From NCBI GenBank assembly GCA_012840135.1, contig DUMA01000003.1, positions 1 through 64,000 on the forward strand: a DNA stretch of 64,000 nucleotides, written 5' to 3'. The stretch comes from Thermoanaerobacterales bacterium (lineage in GTDB: Bacteria; Bacillota; Thermosediminibacteria; Thermosediminibacterales; Tepidanaerobacteraceae). Positions 36,035-61,829 of the stretch are shown here, piece after piece. Below the pieces are notes generated by a model that had not been told where the DNA came from, searched no databases, and worked only from the letters and a program-made list of their open reading frames with translations. Numbering within the stretch: position 1 is the first letter of the stretch; the number at the start of each line of letters is the position of its first letter. The translations under genes were made by a program, and so were the position numbers.

Positions 36035-36227
36035 GTCTCAAGCTGAACGAGATCGCATCGCAAAAGTACTTATTTTCACAATTAAAACTGTCTTTAGCAT
36101 CTAATATTCTTCGGTAGCCGAGCAGAGACTTTTAAAGCTTCAACAAAAACTTTCGGCTAAAGAGAGAAAAAATAATGGGCGCACACTTTCGCACAATTAC
36201 TTAAAATTTGAAGGGAAGATGATTGTT
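36035..36227 (+). other. leader region before hydG with competing inverted repeats
   Basis: AGCCGA (36116-36121) can pair with TCGGCT (36153-36158). CTTTAGC (36092-36098) can pair with an overlapping GCTAAAG (36156-36162). The pairings exclude each other, as in a switching leader, but no known RNA class is recognised. Confidence 0.25.
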
Positions 36228-37658
36228 GTGATAAATAATACCAGGGATTTGGAAACAATGAAGGCTGACTTTATAGATGATGAAGCCATAGAGAAGGCGC
36301 TGAAAAAAGGTAAAAAAACATCAAAAGAAGGTATAAGGCAGATATTTGAAAAAGCTGGAGAGGCCAGAGGTCTTGATCTCGACGACGTCGCAGCGCTGCT
36401 TTTTTGTGAGGATGAGGAACTTTTGGAAGAGATGTACTCCATAGCCCATGAATTGAAGAAAAAAATCTACGGCAACAGGATTGTGCTCTTTGCTCCTCTT
36501 TATTACAGCGACTACTGCATAAACAACTGCCGGTACTGCGGTTACAGGCGGGACAACAAGAATCCCAGGCGCCGCCTTTCCATGGATGAGGTAAGGCAGG
36601 AGGTTCAGATACTAGAGGACATGGGGCATAAGCGTCTGGCACTGGAGGCGGGAGAAGACCCGGTGAACTGCCCCATCGAATATACCCTTGATGTGATAAA
36701 AACCGTATATGACACTAAACTTAAAAACGGCAGCATCCGCCGGGTAAATGTAAACATAGCAGCTACCACCGTTGAAAATTACCGAAAGCTAAAAGATGCG
36801 GGAATAGGGACTTATATTCTATTCCAGGAAACCTATCACAGACCCACCTATAAGTACATGCATCCGTCTGGGCCGAAGAGCGACTATGATTACCACACCA
36901 CCGCCATGGACCGGGCGATGGCTGGAGGCATCGACGATGTGGGATTGGGCGTTTTATTCGGATTGTATGACTATAAATATGAAGTGCTGGCGCTGCTGCA
37001 GCACGCCAGACACCTGGATGAGACCTACGGTGTTGGGCCCCATACCATTTCTTTCCCCAGGATAAGGCCCGCCGCCGGCATCAACATGGAAAACTTCCCG
37101 AATCTTGTGCCGGACGGGGAATTCAAGAAAATTGTGGCCATAGTGCGCCTGGCGGTGCCGTATACCGGAATGATACTTTCCACCAGGGAAAGGCCGGATT
37201 TCAGGGATGAAGTCATAGATGTGGGCATTTCTCAGATAAGTGCCGGTTCCTGCACCGGCGTTGGGGGATATCATGACGAGATATCAAATAAAAACACTAA
37301 AAAGGAACATGCTCCGCAATTTGAAGTAAGCGACCACAGGACTCCAAACGAGGTGCTCATGTCGCTGTGTGACCGCGGGTACCTTCCAAGTTATTGCACA
37401 GCATGCTACAGGCAGGGCCGCACCGGAGACCGGTTCATGCAGCTTGCAAAAACGGGCAACATCCAGAACTGCTGCCTGCCCAATGCCATACTGACCTTTA
37501 AAGAATTTCTGATGGATTACGCTGAGCCGAAGCTCAAAGAGATGGGAGAGAAGGTAATTAAGAAAAGTCTTGATGAGATCCCCAATTCCACCATCAAGCA
37601 GAAGACCGTAGAGAGATTGACTAGGATAGAAGGAGGGGAGCGGGACCTTTACTTTTAA
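36228..37658 (+). CDS. hydG: [FeFe]-hydrogenase H-cluster maturase HydG (radical SAM)
   Basis: About 476 residues. The radical-SAM cluster motif CX3CX2C is CINNCRYC. The C-terminal auxiliary cluster site is CTACYRQG with a later Cys in NIQNC, as in HydG. HydG splits tyrosine to supply CO and cyanide to the hydrogenase H-cluster. I place the start at GTG 36228, nine bases behind GAAGGGAAG; an ATG at 36219 abuts that site. HydE, HydF and the hydrogenase are not in this window, so they must be encoded elsewhere. Confidence 0.92.
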   Translation: MINNTRDLETMKADFIDDEAIEKALKKGKKTSKEGIRQIFEKAGEARGLDLDDVAALLFCEDEELLEEMYSIAHELKKKIYGNRIVLFAPLYYSDYCINNCRYCGYRRDNKNPRRRLSMDEVRQEVQILEDMGHKRLALEAGEDPVNCPIEYTLDVIKTVYDTKLKNGSIRRVNVNIAATTVENYRKLKDAGIGTYILFQETYHRPTYKYMHPSGPKSDYDYHTTAMDRAMAGGIDDVGLGVLFGLYDYKYEVLALLQHARHLDETYGVGPHTISFPRIRPAAGINMENFPNLVPDGEFKKIVAIVRLAVPYTGMILSTRERPDFRDEVIDVGISQISAGSCTGVGGYHDEISNKNTKKEHAPQFEVSDHRTPNEVLMSLCDRGYLPSYCTACYRQGRTGDRFMQLAKTGNIQNCCLPNAILTFKEFLMDYAEPKLKEMGEKVIKKSLDEIPNSTIKQKTVERLTRIEGGERDLYF

Positions 37659-56242: not shown

Positions 56243-56938
56243 ATGACTGAAAAAGAAAGCTTGAGAATTGACGACTACAAGACAGTGAGGGATGCCGTTT
56301 TCGAGAGGTTGAGGAAAGCCATATTAAATGGATATTTTAAGCCAGGAGAGAGGCTCGTGGAAAGTCAGATAGCAGAGGAAATGGGGGTAAGCCGGACTCC
56401 TGTAAGGGAGGCCATAAGAAGGCTGGAAATAGAAAAGCTGGTGGTGAATCTGCCTAGAAAGGGCGTAATGGTAGCTCCTATAAATGAATCCCAGGTGAAG
56501 GAGATTTTCAATATCCGGGGTGCTCTCGAAGGCCTGGCTGTAAAACTGGCTATTGATAATATCGATTCAAAGACCTTGAGGCAAATGGAAGAAATCCTGC
56601 AGGAAATGGACCAAGCCATTAAAAAGGGCGATCTCGACAAAGAAGTGGAATGCAATACACGCTTTCACGATTGCATCTTGAACGCTTCCAAAAGTCCCAA
56701 ACTTTCGGAATTGCTCCGAAACATTCACGACCAGATTCAAAGGTTCAGACACAAGTCTCTATCGGTGGAGGGCAGGCCCCAAATTGCACTTTCGGAACAT
56801 AACGATATACTGCAAGCTATTAAGGAAAAAGATAAGAGCAAGGCCGAACAGTTGATCAAAAATCATATTGAAAATGCTGGAAAGGCTCTCCTGAAAAAAA
56901 TCCATGAAGAAGATAGCATTAAGGTCCTGTCGCAATAA
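56243..56938 (+). CDS. GntR-family regulator with FCD domain (first copy)
   Basis: 231 residues: an N-terminal winged helix (VFERLRKAILNGYFKPGERL, EEMGVSRTPVREAIRRLE) and a C-terminal helical FCD ligand domain of the FadR type. FCD domains bind carboxylic acids, often through a metal held by Asp and His; H-containing CNTRFHDCIL and LSEHNDIL fit those positions. It lies directly upstream of the TctCBA genes and likely senses their substrate. It is paralogous to the regulator at 61952. Confidence 0.9.
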   Translation: MTEKESLRIDDYKTVRDAVFERLRKAILNGYFKPGERLVESQIAEEMGVSRTPVREAIRRLEIEKLVVNLPRKGVMVAPINESQVKEIFNIRGALEGLAVKLAIDNIDSKTLRQMEEILQEMDQAIKKGDLDKEVECNTRFHDCILNASKSPKLSELLRNIHDQIQRFRHKSLSVEGRPQIALSEHNDILQAIKEKDKSKAEQLIKNHIENAGKALLKKIHEEDSIKVLSQ

Positions 56939-57007: not shown

Positions 57008-57095
57008 AATGGCCAAATATTCGGGAGGTGATAAATGGAATATAATATTTTTTAAACCAAGAAAAATATTCAAAAAAATGGGAGGTGTCAATTTC

Positions 57096-58103
57096 GTGAA
57101 TAAGTTAAAAATCTTCCGGCTTTGTTTGATCACTGTTTTGGTTCTCTGTGTAATCACTTTTGCAGCATCCTGCGGTTCTCAAAAGGCGGAATCTCCAAAA
57201 CAGGAACAGCAGCAACAAAAAATAAACTTTCCTGAAAAACCCATCAGCCTTGTTGTTTGGGGATCTCCGGGAGGTGGCAGTGATGTATTCGGCAGAACCC
57301 TGGCCAAGGCGGCGGAACCTATCCTGGGCAAGCCTATAGTGGTGGAAAATAAGCCGGGTGGTGGCGGAGCCACAGCCATGGCTTACCTGGCAAGTCAGAA
57401 GCCCGATGGCTATACCCTTCTGGCGGTTACTACAAATTATGTGTTGACACCGCTTACAAAAAACACTCCCAACACATATAAGGATTTTGATCCGATAATC
57501 ATGATAGGTCGTGACGCCACAATGACCGCTGTAAGGGCCGGGGGAGAAATCAAGAGCATTGAAGATCTTGTGACAATAGGGAAGAACAAGAATCTAAAAT
57601 GGGGGACCTTTGGAGTAGGTACCACCGATCATGTGGCAGCAGCCCTCTTTCAAAAGGCTACCGGTATAAAAGTGGACTTTGTACCTTTTGAAGGCGGCGG
57701 TGAAGCTATGGCCGCACTCCTTGGTGGGCATGTAGATGTATTAAACGGCAATCCCAGCGAAATATCCAGCCAGCTTGAAGCAGGGCAGCTGAAAGGTATC
57801 GGGGTTTTCAGCGCCGAAAGGCTTCAGGACTACAGCGATGTTCCTACATATAAGGAAAAAGGCTACGATATAATTGTGGAGACATGGAGGGGAATAGTGG
57901 CTCCCAAAGGAGTTCCCGAAGAAATAAAGGGAGTGCTCTTTGAAGGTTTTAAAAAGGCTCTGGACGACCCCGTGATGAAGGATTACTACAAGAAAAACAA
58001 TATTATTGAAGAAATCAAAAACGGTAACGAGTTTTATGATTTTATCGAGCAGCAAAATGAGTTTTACAAGAAAACTCTGACCGAAATGGGCCTTATTAAA
58101 TAA
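57096..58103 (+). CDS. tctC: tripartite tricarboxylate transporter substrate-binding lipoprotein TctC
   Basis: 335 residues. The signal peptide ends with a lipobox (ITFAASCGS), so it is anchored outside the membrane. The mature part follows the Bug/TctC pattern: INFPEKPISLVVWGSPGGGS, VVENKPGGGGATAMAYLAS, KPDGYTLL and VAPKGVPEE. It captures an organic acid for TctAB. I place the start at GTG 57096, behind GGGAGGTG; the longer reading from 57009 includes the operator region. The ligand cannot be read from the sequence. Confidence 0.92.
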   Translation: MNKLKIFRLCLITVLVLCVITFAASCGSQKAESPKQEQQQQKINFPEKPISLVVWGSPGGGSDVFGRTLAKAAEPILGKPIVVENKPGGGGATAMAYLASQKPDGYTLLAVTTNYVLTPLTKNTPNTYKDFDPIIMIGRDATMTAVRAGGEIKSIEDLVTIGKNKNLKWGTFGVGTTDHVAAALFQKATGIKVDFVPFEGGGEAMAALLGGHVDVLNGNPSEISSQLEAGQLKGIGVFSAERLQDYSDVPTYKEKGYDIIVETWRGIVAPKGVPEEIKGVLFEGFKKALDDPVMKDYYKKNNIIEEIKNGNEFYDFIEQQNEFYKKTLTEMGLIK

Positions 58104-58177: not shown

Positions 58178-58633
58178 GTGAAAAGGTTGGGAGAAATTAT
58201 TACCGGATTTTTTACGCTGGCATTAGGCATTGTCTGGTTTTTGATGTCATTTTCTCTTGACCAGAATAATGTCGGAGGGAATTTGGGCCTGGGTCCGGGA
58301 TTTTACCCAAAACTTGTTTCTGTGCTATTGATTGTGCTGAGTGTAGTTCTTCTGATTAGTCTGTTTAAACGGAAAGAAAAACTGATTAAACTTGAATATT
58401 CCTTTACAGCTTTTTTTTTGATATTGCTCTGCATCGCGTATCTTGTATTGATGAATGTGATAGGCTATGCCACTACTACTTTCATATATGTCCTGACAAA
58501 TATTTTAATATTGCATGATAAAAAAACCATAAATCTCGTGGATGTCGTATCTGCCTTTTTAGTTTCTGCCAGTCTGTACAGCATATTCCATATACTTTTA
58601 AAAGTACCTCTTCCCAGCGGATACTTTATATAG
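58178..58633 (+). CDS. tctB: tripartite tricarboxylate transporter small membrane subunit TctB
   Basis: 151 residues with four membrane segments and the TctB pattern (GLGPGFYPKLVSVLLIVLSV in the first half, IGYATTTFIYV later). It partners TctA in the membrane. The start may be GTG 58178 or TTG 58187; both have AG-rich sites. It lies 75 bases after tctC and 13 bases before tctA. Confidence 0.88.
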   Translation: MKRLGEIITGFFTLALGIVWFLMSFSLDQNNVGGNLGLGPGFYPKLVSVLLIVLSVVLLISLFKRKEKLIKLEYSFTAFFLILLCIAYLVLMNVIGYATTTFIYVLTNILILHDKKTINLVDVVSAFLVSASLYSIFHILLKVPLPSGYFI

Positions 58634-58645
58634 GGGGTGTTGCAT

Positions 58646-60148
58646 TTGGACCTTGGATTGTTGTTTGAAGGACTGGTGACCATCTTTCAGCCTTACAATT
58701 TTTTAATTACCCTTTTTGGAACGGCCATGGGCATCATATTTGGAGCCCTTCCCGGCATCAATGCATCGATGGGTGTTGCCCTTTTGCTGCCGTTGACCTA
58801 CGGTATGTCACCCATCGCAGCTCTATCGATGCTCCTGGGCATTTATACGGGGGCCATGTATGGGGGTTCCATTACTGCCATCCTGATAAATACTCCTGGC
58901 ACAACGGCTGCCGCCTGCACCGCCTTTGATGGCTACAAGCTCGCGATAAAGGGAAAAGCTGGCAAAGCCCTTGGAATGTCGAATATAGCATCGTTTATCG
59001 GCGGCGTTTTCAGCCTCATTGTTCTAATGATTCTTGCTCCTCTCCTTGCAAAAGTGGCGATCAGCTTCGGTCCGCCGGAGTACTTTGCTCTGGCTGTATT
59101 CGGCCTCAGCGTAATCACCAGCCTTGCCGGAGAACATCTGGTGAAAGGTCTCCTGTCGGGTGCCTTTGGCCTTTTGCTTGGTACGGTGGGGCTTGACTTA
59201 ATCAACGGCTCTCCTCGATATACCTTCGGAATGTATAATTTATTCGATGGAATTTCGTTTATTCCTGTGCTCATCGGGCTTTTTGCTATAGCTCAGGTGC
59301 TCCTCAATGCGGAGAGTAAAGAAAGCATATATCTTAGAACTAAAAAAATTGGTTTTCTGGAGCAGTTGCCCAGTTTTTCGGAACTAAAGTCTGTTATGGT
59401 TTCCATATTGAATTCTTCAGTTATAGGGACTTTTATAGGTATATTGCCGGGGGCCGGTGCTACCATAGCTTCGTTTATATGCTATAACGAAGCCAAGAGA
59501 TGGTCAAAACATCCGGAGGAATTCGGAGAAGGCAGCCTTGAGGGAGTGGCAGCGCCGGAGGCGGGAAATAACGCTGCGACCGGAGGTGCCATGGTTCCTC
59601 TGCTATCGCTGGGCATCCCCGGCTCTGAAACCACTGCGGTGCTGCTGGGGGCATTCATGATTCAGGGCATAAGTCCGGGGCCGCTTCTCTTCAGAGACCA
59701 TATAGATGTGGTCTACGGCATTTTTGCAGGTTTAATCCTGGCAAATATCGCATTTTTGATTATGGGCCTGATTTCGGTGAACTTTTTTGTGAAAGTAATA
59801 CAGATACCAAACAGAATTTTATATCCCCTCATCATCGCACTGGCTTTCGTGGGAGCTTACTCGGTTAAAAACAGCCTGTTCGACGTGGGATTGATGCTTT
59901 TGTTTGGCATCGTGGGATATTTTATGAAGAAGCTTGAATTTCCCACCGCACCGGTTGTGCTGGCACTGGTATTGGGACCCATGGCGGAAGGCTCTTTAAG
60001 GAGAGCTATGATAATGTCCCATGGCAGCTGGGCCATATTTGTTCAAAGGCCCATAACTCTAGTTCTCCTGCTGCTGACTTTATTCTCTTTATTTTTCCCC
60101 TTCCTCCGAGAAAAGTTATCTAAAAAGAAATTATCCGAAAACCTGTAA
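58646..60148 (+). CDS. tctA: tripartite tricarboxylate transporter large membrane subunit TctA
   Basis: 500-residue permease with about twelve membrane segments. The family motifs GALPGINASMGVALLLPLTY and YGGSITAILINTPGTTAA occur in the first half, with a related repeat GILPGAGATIASFICY and EAGNNAATGGAMVPLLSLG in the second half. The complete TctCBA set indicates active uptake of a carboxylic acid driven by an ion gradient. The start is TTG 58646 behind AGGGGGTG. Confidence 0.94.
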   Translation: MDLGLLFEGLVTIFQPYNFLITLFGTAMGIIFGALPGINASMGVALLLPLTYGMSPIAALSMLLGIYTGAMYGGSITAILINTPGTTAAACTAFDGYKLAIKGKAGKALGMSNIASFIGGVFSLIVLMILAPLLAKVAISFGPPEYFALAVFGLSVITSLAGEHLVKGLLSGAFGLLLGTVGLDLINGSPRYTFGMYNLFDGISFIPVLIGLFAIAQVLLNAESKESIYLRTKKIGFLEQLPSFSELKSVMVSILNSSVIGTFIGILPGAGATIASFICYNEAKRWSKHPEEFGEGSLEGVAAPEAGNNAATGGAMVPLLSLGIPGSETTAVLLGAFMIQGISPGPLLFRDHIDVVYGIFAGLILANIAFLIMGLISVNFFVKVIQIPNRILYPLIIALAFVGAYSVKNSLFDVGLMLLFGIVGYFMKKLEFPTAPVVLALVLGPMAEGSLRRAMIMSHGSWAIFVQRPITLVLLLLTLFSLFFPFLREKLSKKKLSENL

Positions 60149-60231: not shown

Positions 60232-60960
60232 ATGACTATAATTAATCAAGAAAAATGCACAGGTTGTGGCACATGTATTCCATACTGCCCTCTTGAAGCC
60301 ATAAAATTGGAAGGTAAAAAAGCTGTAGTGGATCAGGATATCTGCCCCAACTGTTATGTATGCGTGAGAAATAAGGTATGTCCTTTTAATGCCATTGAAA
60401 AACCGGAAATCAGTAATTTTATAGGCCAGTTCCAGCATATTATCAGCGACCCGGTGGAAACTACCGAACAGACGGGGGTCCCGGGCAGGGGTACCGAGGA
60501 GAGTAAGACCAATGATGTGACCGGTAGGGTAAAAAAGGGAAAAGTAGGCATATGCATAGACATGGGGCGACCCGGCATAGGGTGCCGGCTGAGGGACGTC
60601 GAAAAAGTGGCCATGGCGGTTACGGCAGCAGGTTTAAAGCTGGAAGGAGAGGATACCACACCTCTGGCTATGTTGATGGAAGACAACAGCAAAGGAAAAA
60701 TCAAAGAAGAGTATCTCGATACAAATGTTCTTTCCATAATCATAGAAGGCAAATGCCCTATGGAAACTTTTCCCGAAATAATCAAAGCTCTGAAAAAAGT
60801 TGAAAAGGAAATAGATACAGTATTTTCTCTGGGAGTTATGGTTCGAGTTGACGAAAACGGTTATAGTCCTGTCCTTGAACATATTGAAAAACTGGGGCTG
60901 CCGAAGCCTTACAGGGGCAAGGTAAATGTAGGATTGGGCAGGCCTCTGGTCGATGAATAA
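60232..60960 (+). CDS. ferredoxin domain fused to an uncharacterised domain
   Basis: 242 residues. The first 55 carry two 4Fe-4S sites: C9, C12, C15, C19 (CTGCGTCIPYCP) and C38, C41, C44, C50 (CPNCYVCVRNKVCP). After a linker, residues about 90-240 form a domain I cannot name, with GRGTEESKTNDVTGR, VGICIDMGRPGIGCRLRDVE and the ending VNVGLGRPLVDE. The ferredoxin half implies electron transfer to or from the second domain. It has its own operator-like palindrome and is followed 16 bases later by a cysteine-containing partner. Likely cytosolic; the reaction is unknown. Confidence 0.75.
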   Translation: MTIINQEKCTGCGTCIPYCPLEAIKLEGKKAVVDQDICPNCYVCVRNKVCPFNAIEKPEISNFIGQFQHIISDPVETTEQTGVPGRGTEESKTNDVTGRVKKGKVGICIDMGRPGIGCRLRDVEKVAMAVTAAGLKLEGEDTTPLAMLMEDNSKGKIKEEYLDTNVLSIIIEGKCPMETFPEIIKALKKVEKEIDTVFSLGVMVRVDENGYSPVLEHIEKLGLPKPYRGKVNVGLGRPLVDE

Positions 60961-60976
60961 ATGAAAGGGGTAATGA

Positions 60977-61606
60977 ATGATGACACATTCACTGCACAGA
61001 AGCGGTACTTTGGAATCCTTAAAGGGCGATTATGTTTGGTTTATGTACCAGGCAAAGGGTATAAATGATACAAACATCAAGGAAAAAGCGGAAGAATTTA
61101 TAGCTGCAGCAGAACTGGTGGGATCTGAAAACTGGGGGGATGTTAAAACCGGTCCCATAGTATCTTATCCAAAGGAATATATAAAACAAAACATCGGAAA
61201 TAAATCGAGATTGAGGGGAGTTTTTACCAGCAGAAAACAGGTTACGGAATTTTTAAGTATCATAAAGCAGAAAAATCTTGGCATATCTGTGGTCATAAGC
61301 GGACTCCTGGATGAGGTCTTGCAAGCATGCAAGGAGGCGGGGGTTACTCCACATACTATAAACTATTCTTTGGGTATATGGGGCAAAAAAGAACTTTTAC
61401 CCGATGATGACATATTGAGCATAACCACCATGTGCGGCCACCACATGATTTCTCCCAATCTTGTAAAAAAACTTGTCCTGGATGTAAAAAAAGGGAAAAT
61501 TACCCCTGAAAAAGCGGCATGGAAGCTGGCCACCTTCTGCCCGTGTGGTATTTTTAACCAGGTGAGGGCGGAAAAACTGATAGAGGAGCTAAAAAATAAA
61601 AGTTAG
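60977..61606 (+). CDS. uncharacterised protein with CGHH and CPCG motifs, partner of the ferredoxin fusion
   Basis: 209 residues, cytosolic, no membrane segment. Notable motifs are ITTMCGHHMISPNLV (Cys153, His155, His156) and FCPCGIFN (Cys188, Cys190), which could bind a metal or Fe-S cluster together. The central part VVISGLLDEVLQACKEAGVT and HTINYSLGIWG looks like an alpha/beta fold. It begins HRSGTLESLKGDYVWFMYQA. I do not know this family's function. It overlaps no gene but is 16 bases behind the ferredoxin fusion, so the two are almost surely co-expressed. Confidence 0.75.
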   Translation: MMTHSLHRSGTLESLKGDYVWFMYQAKGINDTNIKEKAEEFIAAAELVGSENWGDVKTGPIVSYPKEYIKQNIGNKSRLRGVFTSRKQVTEFLSIIKQKNLGISVVISGLLDEVLQACKEAGVTPHTINYSLGIWGKKELLPDDDILSITTMCGHHMISPNLVKKLVLDVKKGKITPEKAAWKLATFCPCGIFNQVRAEKLIEELKNKS

Positions 61607-61829
61607 ACGATATCATGACCACCCGTTTTACGGGTGGTCTCAACTTGCCGTTAAGAGCTTGGCCGGTTGAGCATCAAGGTTTTTTGAATGGCCCTTGGCC
61701 GCACATTTTTTCAGGCTGCACCGAAAGGAACAACTTTTTTTTGCCTTTATTTAAATTATTACTTTCGGTTGTTCCGGCAGGTGGTCATGTTTTTAAAAAT
61801 AAAAAACATAAAAGATATTTTTTTTCTTT
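61607..61829 (+). other. spacer with an isolated GC-rich hairpin
   Basis: Nine-base stem GACCACCCG (61617-61625) and CGGGTGGTC (61631-61639) with loop TTTTA, 11 bases past the stop of the CGHH protein. No T tract follows at once, so termination is uncertain. The hairpin also resembles structures at ends of IS200/IS605-type elements, but no transposase is present. The rest holds no gene I can support. Confidence 0.35.

What the first reader, a model, noticed from the sequence alone, without database searches (positions are those of the whole stretch)
60232..61606. Two-gene unit: ferredoxin-fused unknown domain plus CGHH/CPCG protein
The C-terminal domain of the first protein (ESKTNDVTGR, DMGRPGIGCR, VGLGRPL motifs) and the whole second protein match nothing I can name. 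The cysteines of the second protein are spaced like a metal or cluster site. A ferredoxin next to a possible cluster protein suggests an unknown oxidoreductase or radical-type enzyme.
Basis: partly seen in the sequence, partly recalled or inferred. Interest (0 to 1): 0.6.

Follow-up and report, generated by a model that had tools for sequence, protein, structure and literature searches.

The report
Unnamed two-protein iron-sulfur enzyme family
Two neighbouring genes in an anaerobic bacterium encode partner iron-sulfur proteins that belong to a widespread but unnamed family, probably a new kind of electron-transferring enzyme that works on organic acids taken up by the transporter encoded next to them.

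Summary
P1 (60232-60960) is a 2[4Fe-4S] ferredoxin domain fused to a domain that matches no Pfam, NCBIfam or PDB sequence or fold. P2 (60980-61606; listed from 60977) matches nothing either, although its AlphaFold model is very confident (pLDDT 95).

They are a conserved pair. 469 P2 loci were confirmed in one genome collection, in Bacillota, Desulfobacterota, Synergistota, Chloroflexota and archaea. P1 lies just upstream of P2 in nearly every intact locus, and the two trees mirror each other (r=0.93). P2's CGH...CxCG motif (C152, H154, C187, C189) is invariant in all 105 sequences and in the most divergent members.

The window operon is GntR-TctC-TctB-TctA-P1-P2, beside aconitase, citrate lyase and isocitrate dehydrogenase. 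Some divergent P1s carry Tat-type signals.

Best reading: an obligate P1-P2 oxidoreductase. P1 relays low-potential electrons to a three-cysteine cluster site in P2 that acts on a carboxylic acid. The complex and the cluster ligands are well supported; substrate and direction are inferred. Nothing supports a radical-SAM or glycyl-radical enzyme.

The parts
56243..56938 (+). GntR/FCD-type transcriptional regulator, probable regulator of the operon
   Evidence: Pfam GntR 9.9e-20 and FCD 3.7e-33
57009..58103 (+). TctC, substrate-binding protein of a tripartite tricarboxylate transporter
   Evidence: Pfam TctC 2.3e-49
58178..58633 (+). TctB, small membrane subunit
   Evidence: Pfam TctB 4.2e-17
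58637..60148 (+). TctA, large membrane subunit; ends 83 bp before P1
   Evidence: Pfam TctA 3.2e-167
60232..60408 (+). P1, N-terminal 2[4Fe-4S] ferredoxin domain (residues 1-59): C9 C12 C15 C19 and C38 C41 C44 C50
   Evidence: Pfam Fer4 1.5e-9; 7 of 8 Cys invariant in 82 sequences and the eighth (C12) in over 90%; all 8 invariant in 13 diverse members; best fold match A. vinosum ferredoxin 3eun
60409..60960 (+). P1, C-terminal unnamed domain (residues 60-242)
   Evidence: No Pfam, NCBIfam or convincing PDB match; present in 73 aligned relatives; model pLDDT 88, no PDB fold match to this domain at E<=0.001
60484..60528 (+). P1 motif GRGTEESKTNDVTGR (residues 85-99), putative anion/substrate loop
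   Evidence: G85 R86 G87 K92 T93 N94 invariant even in the divergent set
60565..60576 (+). P1 motif GRPG (residues 112-115)
   Evidence: G112 R113 P114 invariant
60919..60948 (+). P1 motif KVNVGLGRPL (residues 230-239)
   Evidence: K230 N232 G234 invariant
60980..61606 (+). P2, 208-aa unnamed partner protein (ORF listed from 60977)
   Evidence: 469 confirmed loci; alignment of 105; model pLDDT 95, pTM 0.91, no PDB fold match at E<=0.001
61433..61441 (+). P2 C152-G153-H154, first half of the putative cluster site
   Evidence: Invariant in 105 sequences and in the divergent set
61538..61546 (+). P2 C187-x-C189, second half of the putative cluster site
   Evidence: Invariant in 105 sequences and in the divergent set
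61617..61640 (+). Strong hairpin just after P2, possible transcript end (no T run)
   Evidence: MFE -21.9 kcal/mol for 61600-61660, z -4.1

Best explanation
P1 and P2 are the two subunits of an obligate iron-sulfur oxidoreductase from an unnamed family. P1's low-potential two-cluster ferredoxin domain takes electrons from, or gives them to, the cell's ferredoxin pool. In relatives with the Fd180/CODH-like/FAD-reductase set, the source would be NAD(P)H through that chain. The electrons pass to a third iron-sulfur cluster in P2, bound by C152, C187 and C189 with H154 close by. Because only three Cys are invariant, one iron is probably open to bind substrate. The substrate is an organic acid brought in by the adjacent transporter. 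Conserved Arg, Lys and Asn residues of P1's C-terminal domain (R86, K92, N94, R113, K230, N232) and of P2 (R7, H125, N193) would hold its carboxylates. For the window's subfamily (clade I) the likeliest substrates are aconitate/tricarballylate-type tricarboxylates, feeding or balancing aconitase, isocitrate dehydrogenase and citrate lyase. Shown: coding genes, obligate pairing, conserved motifs, operon context. Inferred: heteromeric complex, cluster in P2, redox direction, substrate.
For: P1 and P2 profiles hit the same 25 genomes out of 398, apart from fragment and chance hits. P1 lies directly upstream of P2 in 75 of 82 called cases, mostly overlapping or within 25 bp; six-frame search recovers P1 in several of the rest. 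P1 and P2 trees co-diverge, r=0.93 against a permutation maximum of 0.15, and in 8 loci with two or more pairs each P1 tracks its own P2. Cluster-type residues are invariant in P1 and P2 across deep divergence. Strong purifying selection. Transporter context: TctA in 36/49 clade I loci; aconitase/LeuCD, Iso_dh or MmgE/PrpD in 18/49 clade I versus 1/31 other loci, p=4e-4. LeuD-like subunits nearby mostly carry an aconitase-like TDHI motif. Redox context: Fd180 + CODH-N-terminus-like + pyridine-nucleotide reductase beside about 20 loci and AOR in several. Exported variants with Tat-type signals on P1 suggest a cofactor-loaded complex that needs no soluble NAD, CoA or ATP.
Against: No spectroscopy, activity or complex structure. 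The model gives no cofactors, and co-folding was not available here. Three Cys plus a His could bind zinc instead. A ferredoxin domain can be structural. Several divergent pairs are not next to a transporter. One archaeal locus has P2 with no P1 upstream (L088). Oxidising a tricarballylate-type acid with ferredoxin as acceptor would be strongly uphill, so for such substrates only reduction is plausible (general knowledge of potentials).
Confidence: 0.55

Rival explanations
1. P1-P2 is a redox-neutral [4Fe-4S] lyase or isomerase (aconitase-, fumarase- or serine-dehydratase-like in chemistry) that (de)hydrates or isomerises the imported acid, for example trans- to cis-aconitate. The ferredoxin domain only keeps the P2 cluster reduced or is structural.
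For: Three invariant Cys is the ligand set of open-site hydro-lyase clusters. Clade I neighbours are aconitase/LeuCD, MmgE/PrpD and Iso_dh. Some operons consist only of regulator, transporter and P1-P2.
Against: All eight ferredoxin cysteines are kept almost everywhere, and many relatives sit with a dedicated NAD(P)H-linked electron-transfer set, which a redox-neutral enzyme would not need. No match to the Aconitase Pfam model or other hydro-lyase models.
Confidence: 0.22
2. P1-P2 is an electron-transfer or activation accessory for another enzyme of the operon (an activase or ferredoxin shuttle) and not itself catalytic.
For: Small proteins with ferredoxin clusters; co-occurrence with AOR, CODH-like and FAD-reductase genes.
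Against: In many loci the only companions are a transporter and a regulator, so there is no enzyme to serve (L047, L052, L065). The invariant polar motifs and the per-pair co-divergence look catalytic.
Confidence: 0.13
3. P2 is a zinc or other metal-binding sensor/regulator of the transporter and P1 a redox sensor, forming a signalling unit.
For: Tight linkage to transporters and regulators.
Against: Transport operons already carry GntR, LysR or sigma-54 regulators. No DNA-binding or signalling domain was found. Exported and transporter-free versions exist.
Confidence: 0.05
4. Radical enzyme (radical SAM or glycyl-radical type).
For: Iron-sulfur proteins of anaerobes.
Against: No radical-SAM CxxxCxxC motif or Pfam match in P1 or P2; no glycyl-radical model.
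Confidence: 0.02

Closest known systems
2[4Fe-4S] ferredoxins of the Allochromatium vinosum type (PDB 3eun, 3exy)
   Same: P1 residues 1-60: same fold (3eun: 31% identity, rmsd 2.0) and the extended second Cys motif (CxxCxxCx5C)
   Different: P1 has a further unnamed domain of about 180 aa and a dedicated partner
6-hydroxynicotinate reductase (Hnr) of Eubacterium barkeri (recalled, not compared)
   Same: As recalled: a ferredoxin-dependent reductase of an organic acid in an anaerobe, with a ferredoxin-like part and a further cluster
   Different: As recalled, Hnr has a covalent flavin and a [2Fe-2S] cluster; no flavin-binding model matched here.
Aconitase/3-isopropylmalate dehydratase and other three-Cys [4Fe-4S] hydro-lyases
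   Same: Possible three-Cys cluster with an open iron; same type of substrate; genes are neighbours
   Different: No sequence or fold similarity; P1-P2 carries a complete ferredoxin
Tripartite tricarboxylate transporter (TctABC) catabolic operons
   Same: P1-P2 is a regular metabolic passenger of such TctABC clusters among the loci studied
   Different: The passenger enzyme is unnamed and also occurs with TRAP transporters or with no transporter
PadH/PadI-type NADH:acceptor modules of phenylglyoxylate dehydrogenase
   Same: The FAD reductase and Fd180 neighbours of about 20 relatives resemble PadH and PadI
   Different: Not present next to the window's pair; the associated catalytic subunits differ

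Membership tests
Bacterial 2[4Fe-4S] ferredoxin domain (P1 N-terminus) | Two CxxCxxCx(n)C motifs and ferredoxin fold | tested here: met
   Fer4 1.5e-9; Cys invariant; fold match 3eun/1fca
Any Pfam or NCBIfam family (P1 C-terminus, P2) | Profile match at or above the curated cut-off | tested here: not met
   No match above cut-off in the window proteins and no consistent match in 73 and 105 members
Solved protein folds (PDB) | Foldseek match at E<=0.001 to P2 or to P1's C-terminal domain | tested here: not met
   P2: best E 0.028, TM-score normalised by query at most about 0.3; P1: the only such match is to the ferredoxin domain
Radical SAM / glycyl-radical enzymes | CxxxCxxC and SAM domain, or glycyl-radical motif | tested here: not met
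   No model match beyond chance; motif absent from the sequences
Aconitase superfamily | Aconitase Pfam domain | tested here: not met
   No Aconitase hit for P1 or P2; analogy in cluster ligation remains possible
6-hydroxynicotinate reductase (Hnr) | Sequence homology to Hnr; covalent flavin and [2Fe-2S] | not testable with these tools
Methanogenesis marker 8 (DUF2099) | Homology to the DUF2099 profile with CGH/CxCG conserved | tested here: not met
   Weak library hits not confirmed by direct comparison; archaeal DUF2099 proteins lack the motifs
Three-Cys site-differentiated [4Fe-4S] enzyme (functional class) | Three conserved Cys ligands plus bound cluster | tested here: inconclusive
   Three invariant Cys and CGH histidine shown; cluster presence needs spectroscopy

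The most novel reading that the evidence does not exclude
P1-P2 founds a new class of ferredoxin-driven enzymes. A three-cysteine, histidine-flanked iron-sulfur site in P2, at the interface with a new carboxylate-binding domain of P1, performs substrate-level redox chemistry (C=C reduction or IspH-like reductive elimination) on many organic acids without flavin, NAD or CoA. It has diversified into up to nine paralogue hits per genome and even into an exported, lipid-anchored form that could act as a respiratory reductase.
Probability: 0.3. Interest if true: 0.78.

Novelty: categorically new. Interest (0 to 1): 0.6.

Why it matters
An obligate pair of proteins found in about 6% of sampled genomes of the window's phylum and about 10% of another sampled group, with invariant cluster-type residues and no family name, structure or function, is a sizeable gap in the enzymology of anaerobic carbon metabolism. 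Frequent linkage to transporters tells an experimenter what to feed the cells, so the reaction can be tested directly. If it is a flavin-free, ferredoxin-driven redox enzyme for di- or tricarboxylates, it would add a route by which acetogens, syntrophs, sulfate reducers and rumen bacteria use or dispose of electrons through plant and microbial organic acids.

Tried and rejected
(1) Real P1-P2 fusion in L038: rejected. P1's C-terminal third is frame-shifted there, so the run-on ORF is an artefact. (2) Methanogenesis marker 8 homology: rejected after direct comparison. (3) P1C hit in G041 (E 0.008): a MurF gene, chance. (4) P1C and P2 as homologues of each other: not supported (hhalign probability 1.7%). 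(5) PDB sequence hits of P2 (pentatricopeptide, XPA) and P1C (glycerate kinase): judged composition or chance. (6) Plasmid collection for annotated relatives: none for P2, only ferredoxin-part or weak hits for P1. (7) Literature searches for Hnr, Tct-linked iron-sulfur proteins, tricarballylate/aconitate metabolism and the window's clade gave no paper naming this pair in titles or abstracts. (8) A CODH-like subunit in the window's own genome: only a match to the N-terminal part of a 634-aa CODH-sized ORF, so the Fd180/CODH-like/FNOR chain is not evident there.

Full report
OBSERVATION. The listed P2 start gives MMTHSLHR; the second ATG (60980) is the likely start, because relatives begin MTHSLHR. 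Between the window and its sister species G001, dN/dS is 0.032 for P2 and 0.083 for P1, so both are real genes under strong constraint. Upstream, in the same direction, lie GntR/FCD, TctC, TctB and TctA (Pfam). Downstream, outside the finding, are a second GntR, an aconitase, AtuA (DUF1446), DUF4387, a second TctC-TctB-TctA set, citrate lyase subunits D, E and F, and an NADP-type isocitrate dehydrogenase. A strong hairpin follows P2.

WHAT THE PROTEINS ARE. P1's first 56 residues are a 2[4Fe-4S] ferredoxin; its best fold match is the Allochromatium vinosum ferredoxin. The rest of P1 and all of P2 match no Pfam or NCBIfam model, alone or as 73 and 105 relatives, and no PDB sequence convincingly. 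AlphaFold models are confident (P2 pLDDT 95.1, pTM 0.91; P1 88.2, 0.86). Foldseek finds no PDB match at E<=0.001 for P2 or for P1's C-terminal domain. From the secondary structure, P2 has a beta-alpha-beta core (residues 18-107) and a mainly helical C-terminal part that carries the Cys motifs.

CONSERVATION. In 105 P2 sequences R7, G9, G108, G135, M151, C152, G153, H154, C187, C189 and N193 are invariant. In a more divergent set R7, G9, S103, H125, G132, G135, P141, C152-G-H154, C187-x-C189-G190 and N193 survive. In P1 the eight ferredoxin Cys and G85-R-G87, K92-T-N94, G112-R-P114, K230, N232 and G234 survive.

OBLIGATE PAIR. A genome-collection scan confirmed 469 P2-like loci (80 kept) in Bacillota, Desulfobacterota, Synergistota, Chloroflexota and archaea, judged from record titles. 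In 398 genomes of the window's phylum the P1C and P2 profiles hit the same 25 genomes, apart from fragments and one chance MurF hit, with up to 8 P1C copies per genome. In 247 genomes of the phylum of G414 (the Desulfobacterales genome of L078), 26 have P2, up to nine hits per genome. P1 is directly upstream in 75 of 82 called cases, typically with an overlap of 4 bp or a gap under 25 bp. Six-frame search recovers P1 in further cases and leaves L088 (archaeon, P2 alone), a third tandem P2 in L040, and contig ends. P1 and P2 trees mirror each other (r=0.93; 2000 permutations reach at most 0.15), and where two or more pairs lie in one locus swapping partners lowers the fit in all 8 cases. This is the pattern of an obligate complex; physical interaction itself is not shown.

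CONTEXT. There are two main clades. Clade I includes the window (CGHH). Of 49 clade I loci (at least 51% identity), TctA is present in 36, and aconitase/LeuCD, isocitrate/isopropylmalate-type dehydrogenase or MmgE/PrpD in 18, against 7 and 1 of 31 other loci (p=1e-5 and 4e-4). These counts treat related genomes as independent and use simple ORF calling, so they are indicative. LeuD-like small subunits beside clade I pairs mostly carry D[ND]ISTDHILPSR, like the window's own aconitase (DNITTDHI), so an aconitate-type substrate is plausible. Clade II is richer in a redox set: a HydN-like ferredoxin (Fd180), a protein whose N-terminus matches CO dehydrogenase (TIGR01702) but whose remainder is unassigned, and a PadH-like pyridine-nucleotide reductase, plus TRAP transporters, 3-hydroxyisobutyrate-dehydrogenase-type enzymes and aldehyde:ferredoxin oxidoreductase. 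Several clade I operons contain only a regulator, the transporter and the pair (L047, L052, L065), so the pair itself should carry out the first step on the imported acid.

EXPORTED FORMS. Two divergent P1 proteins start with SRRDFLKTTG...LSGC (L194) and KRRDFLLGS...QAGC (L196) before the ferredoxin domain. These look like twin-arginine signals followed by a lipobox; P2 has no signal. Tat substrates are normally folded with cofactors, and such partners can be carried along (general knowledge). This supports a cofactor-loaded complex whose chemistry needs no soluble NAD, CoA or ATP. Signal prediction here is by eye.

MECHANISM. Most likely the ferredoxin pool (or NAD(P)H through the Fd180/CODH-like/FAD set in other species) exchanges electrons with P1's two clusters, which pass them to a cluster in P2 held by C152, C187 and C189, with H154 as a possible fourth ligand or proton donor. 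Conserved R, K and N residues of both subunits bind the carboxylates of the substrate. For clade I, aconitate or tricarballylate-type acids are favoured. With ferredoxin as partner, reduction is energetically favoured for such C=C/C-C couples (general knowledge), so a fermentation in which part of the acid is oxidised through aconitase/IDH and part reduced by P1-P2 is a concrete, testable proposal. I hold the oxidoreductase statement at 0.55 and the aconitate/tricarballylate assignment at about 0.15.

RIVALS. A redox-neutral three-Cys hydro-lyase or isomerase is the main rival (0.22), then an electron-transfer accessory (0.13), then a sensor (0.05). A radical-SAM or glycyl-radical enzyme is not supported.

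NOVELTY. Neither P1C nor P2 has a name, family model or solved relative in the collections searched. I rate it categorically new at the level of the protein family, with two cautions. First, the only similar system I recall, 6-hydroxynicotinate reductase of Eubacterium barkeri, could not be compared. Second, InterPro/COG/eggNOG and most subscription literature were not searchable here. If either shows a match, this becomes a new variant of a known kind.

Noticed in passing
L194:5974-6867 (-) and L196:3878-4726 (+): Divergent P1 homologues with an apparent Tat signal plus lipobox before the ferredoxin domain; the partner P2 has no signal. Suggests an exported, lipid-anchored version of the complex.
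   Followed up: partly
L053:3999-5486, L082, L083, L108 and about 16 other loci: A protein of about 500 aa whose N-terminal 80 residues match CO dehydrogenase (TIGR01702) while the rest is unassigned, usually with a HydN-like ferredoxin and a PadH-like FAD reductase beside P1-P2: possibly a new NAD(P)H-linked electron-transfer module.
   Followed up: partly
L034, L040, L042, L043, L054, L073, L077, L084: Single loci carrying both a clade I and a clade II P1-P2 pair (in several directly in tandem), suggesting two successive reactions or a larger complex.
   Followed up: partly
L002:4953-6677 (downstream of the window): AtuA/DUF1446 protein followed by DUF4387 inside an aconitase-TctCBA-CitDEF-IDH cluster; the same two genes lie near P1-P2 in L079 and L101. 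Function unknown, probably in tricarboxylate metabolism.
   Followed up: no
L088:8989-9621: A Bathyarchaeota P2 with no P1 upstream, an exception to the pairing rule.
   Followed up: partly
L036, L050, L055, L061: M29-peptidase-like proteins of about 323-330 aa repeatedly next to clade I P1-P2 and TctABC; likely not peptidases in this setting.
   Followed up: no
window 36219-37658 (+): ORF whose NNCRYCGYRR motif looks like a radical-SAM ThiH/HydG-type enzyme; judged by eye only.
   Followed up: no
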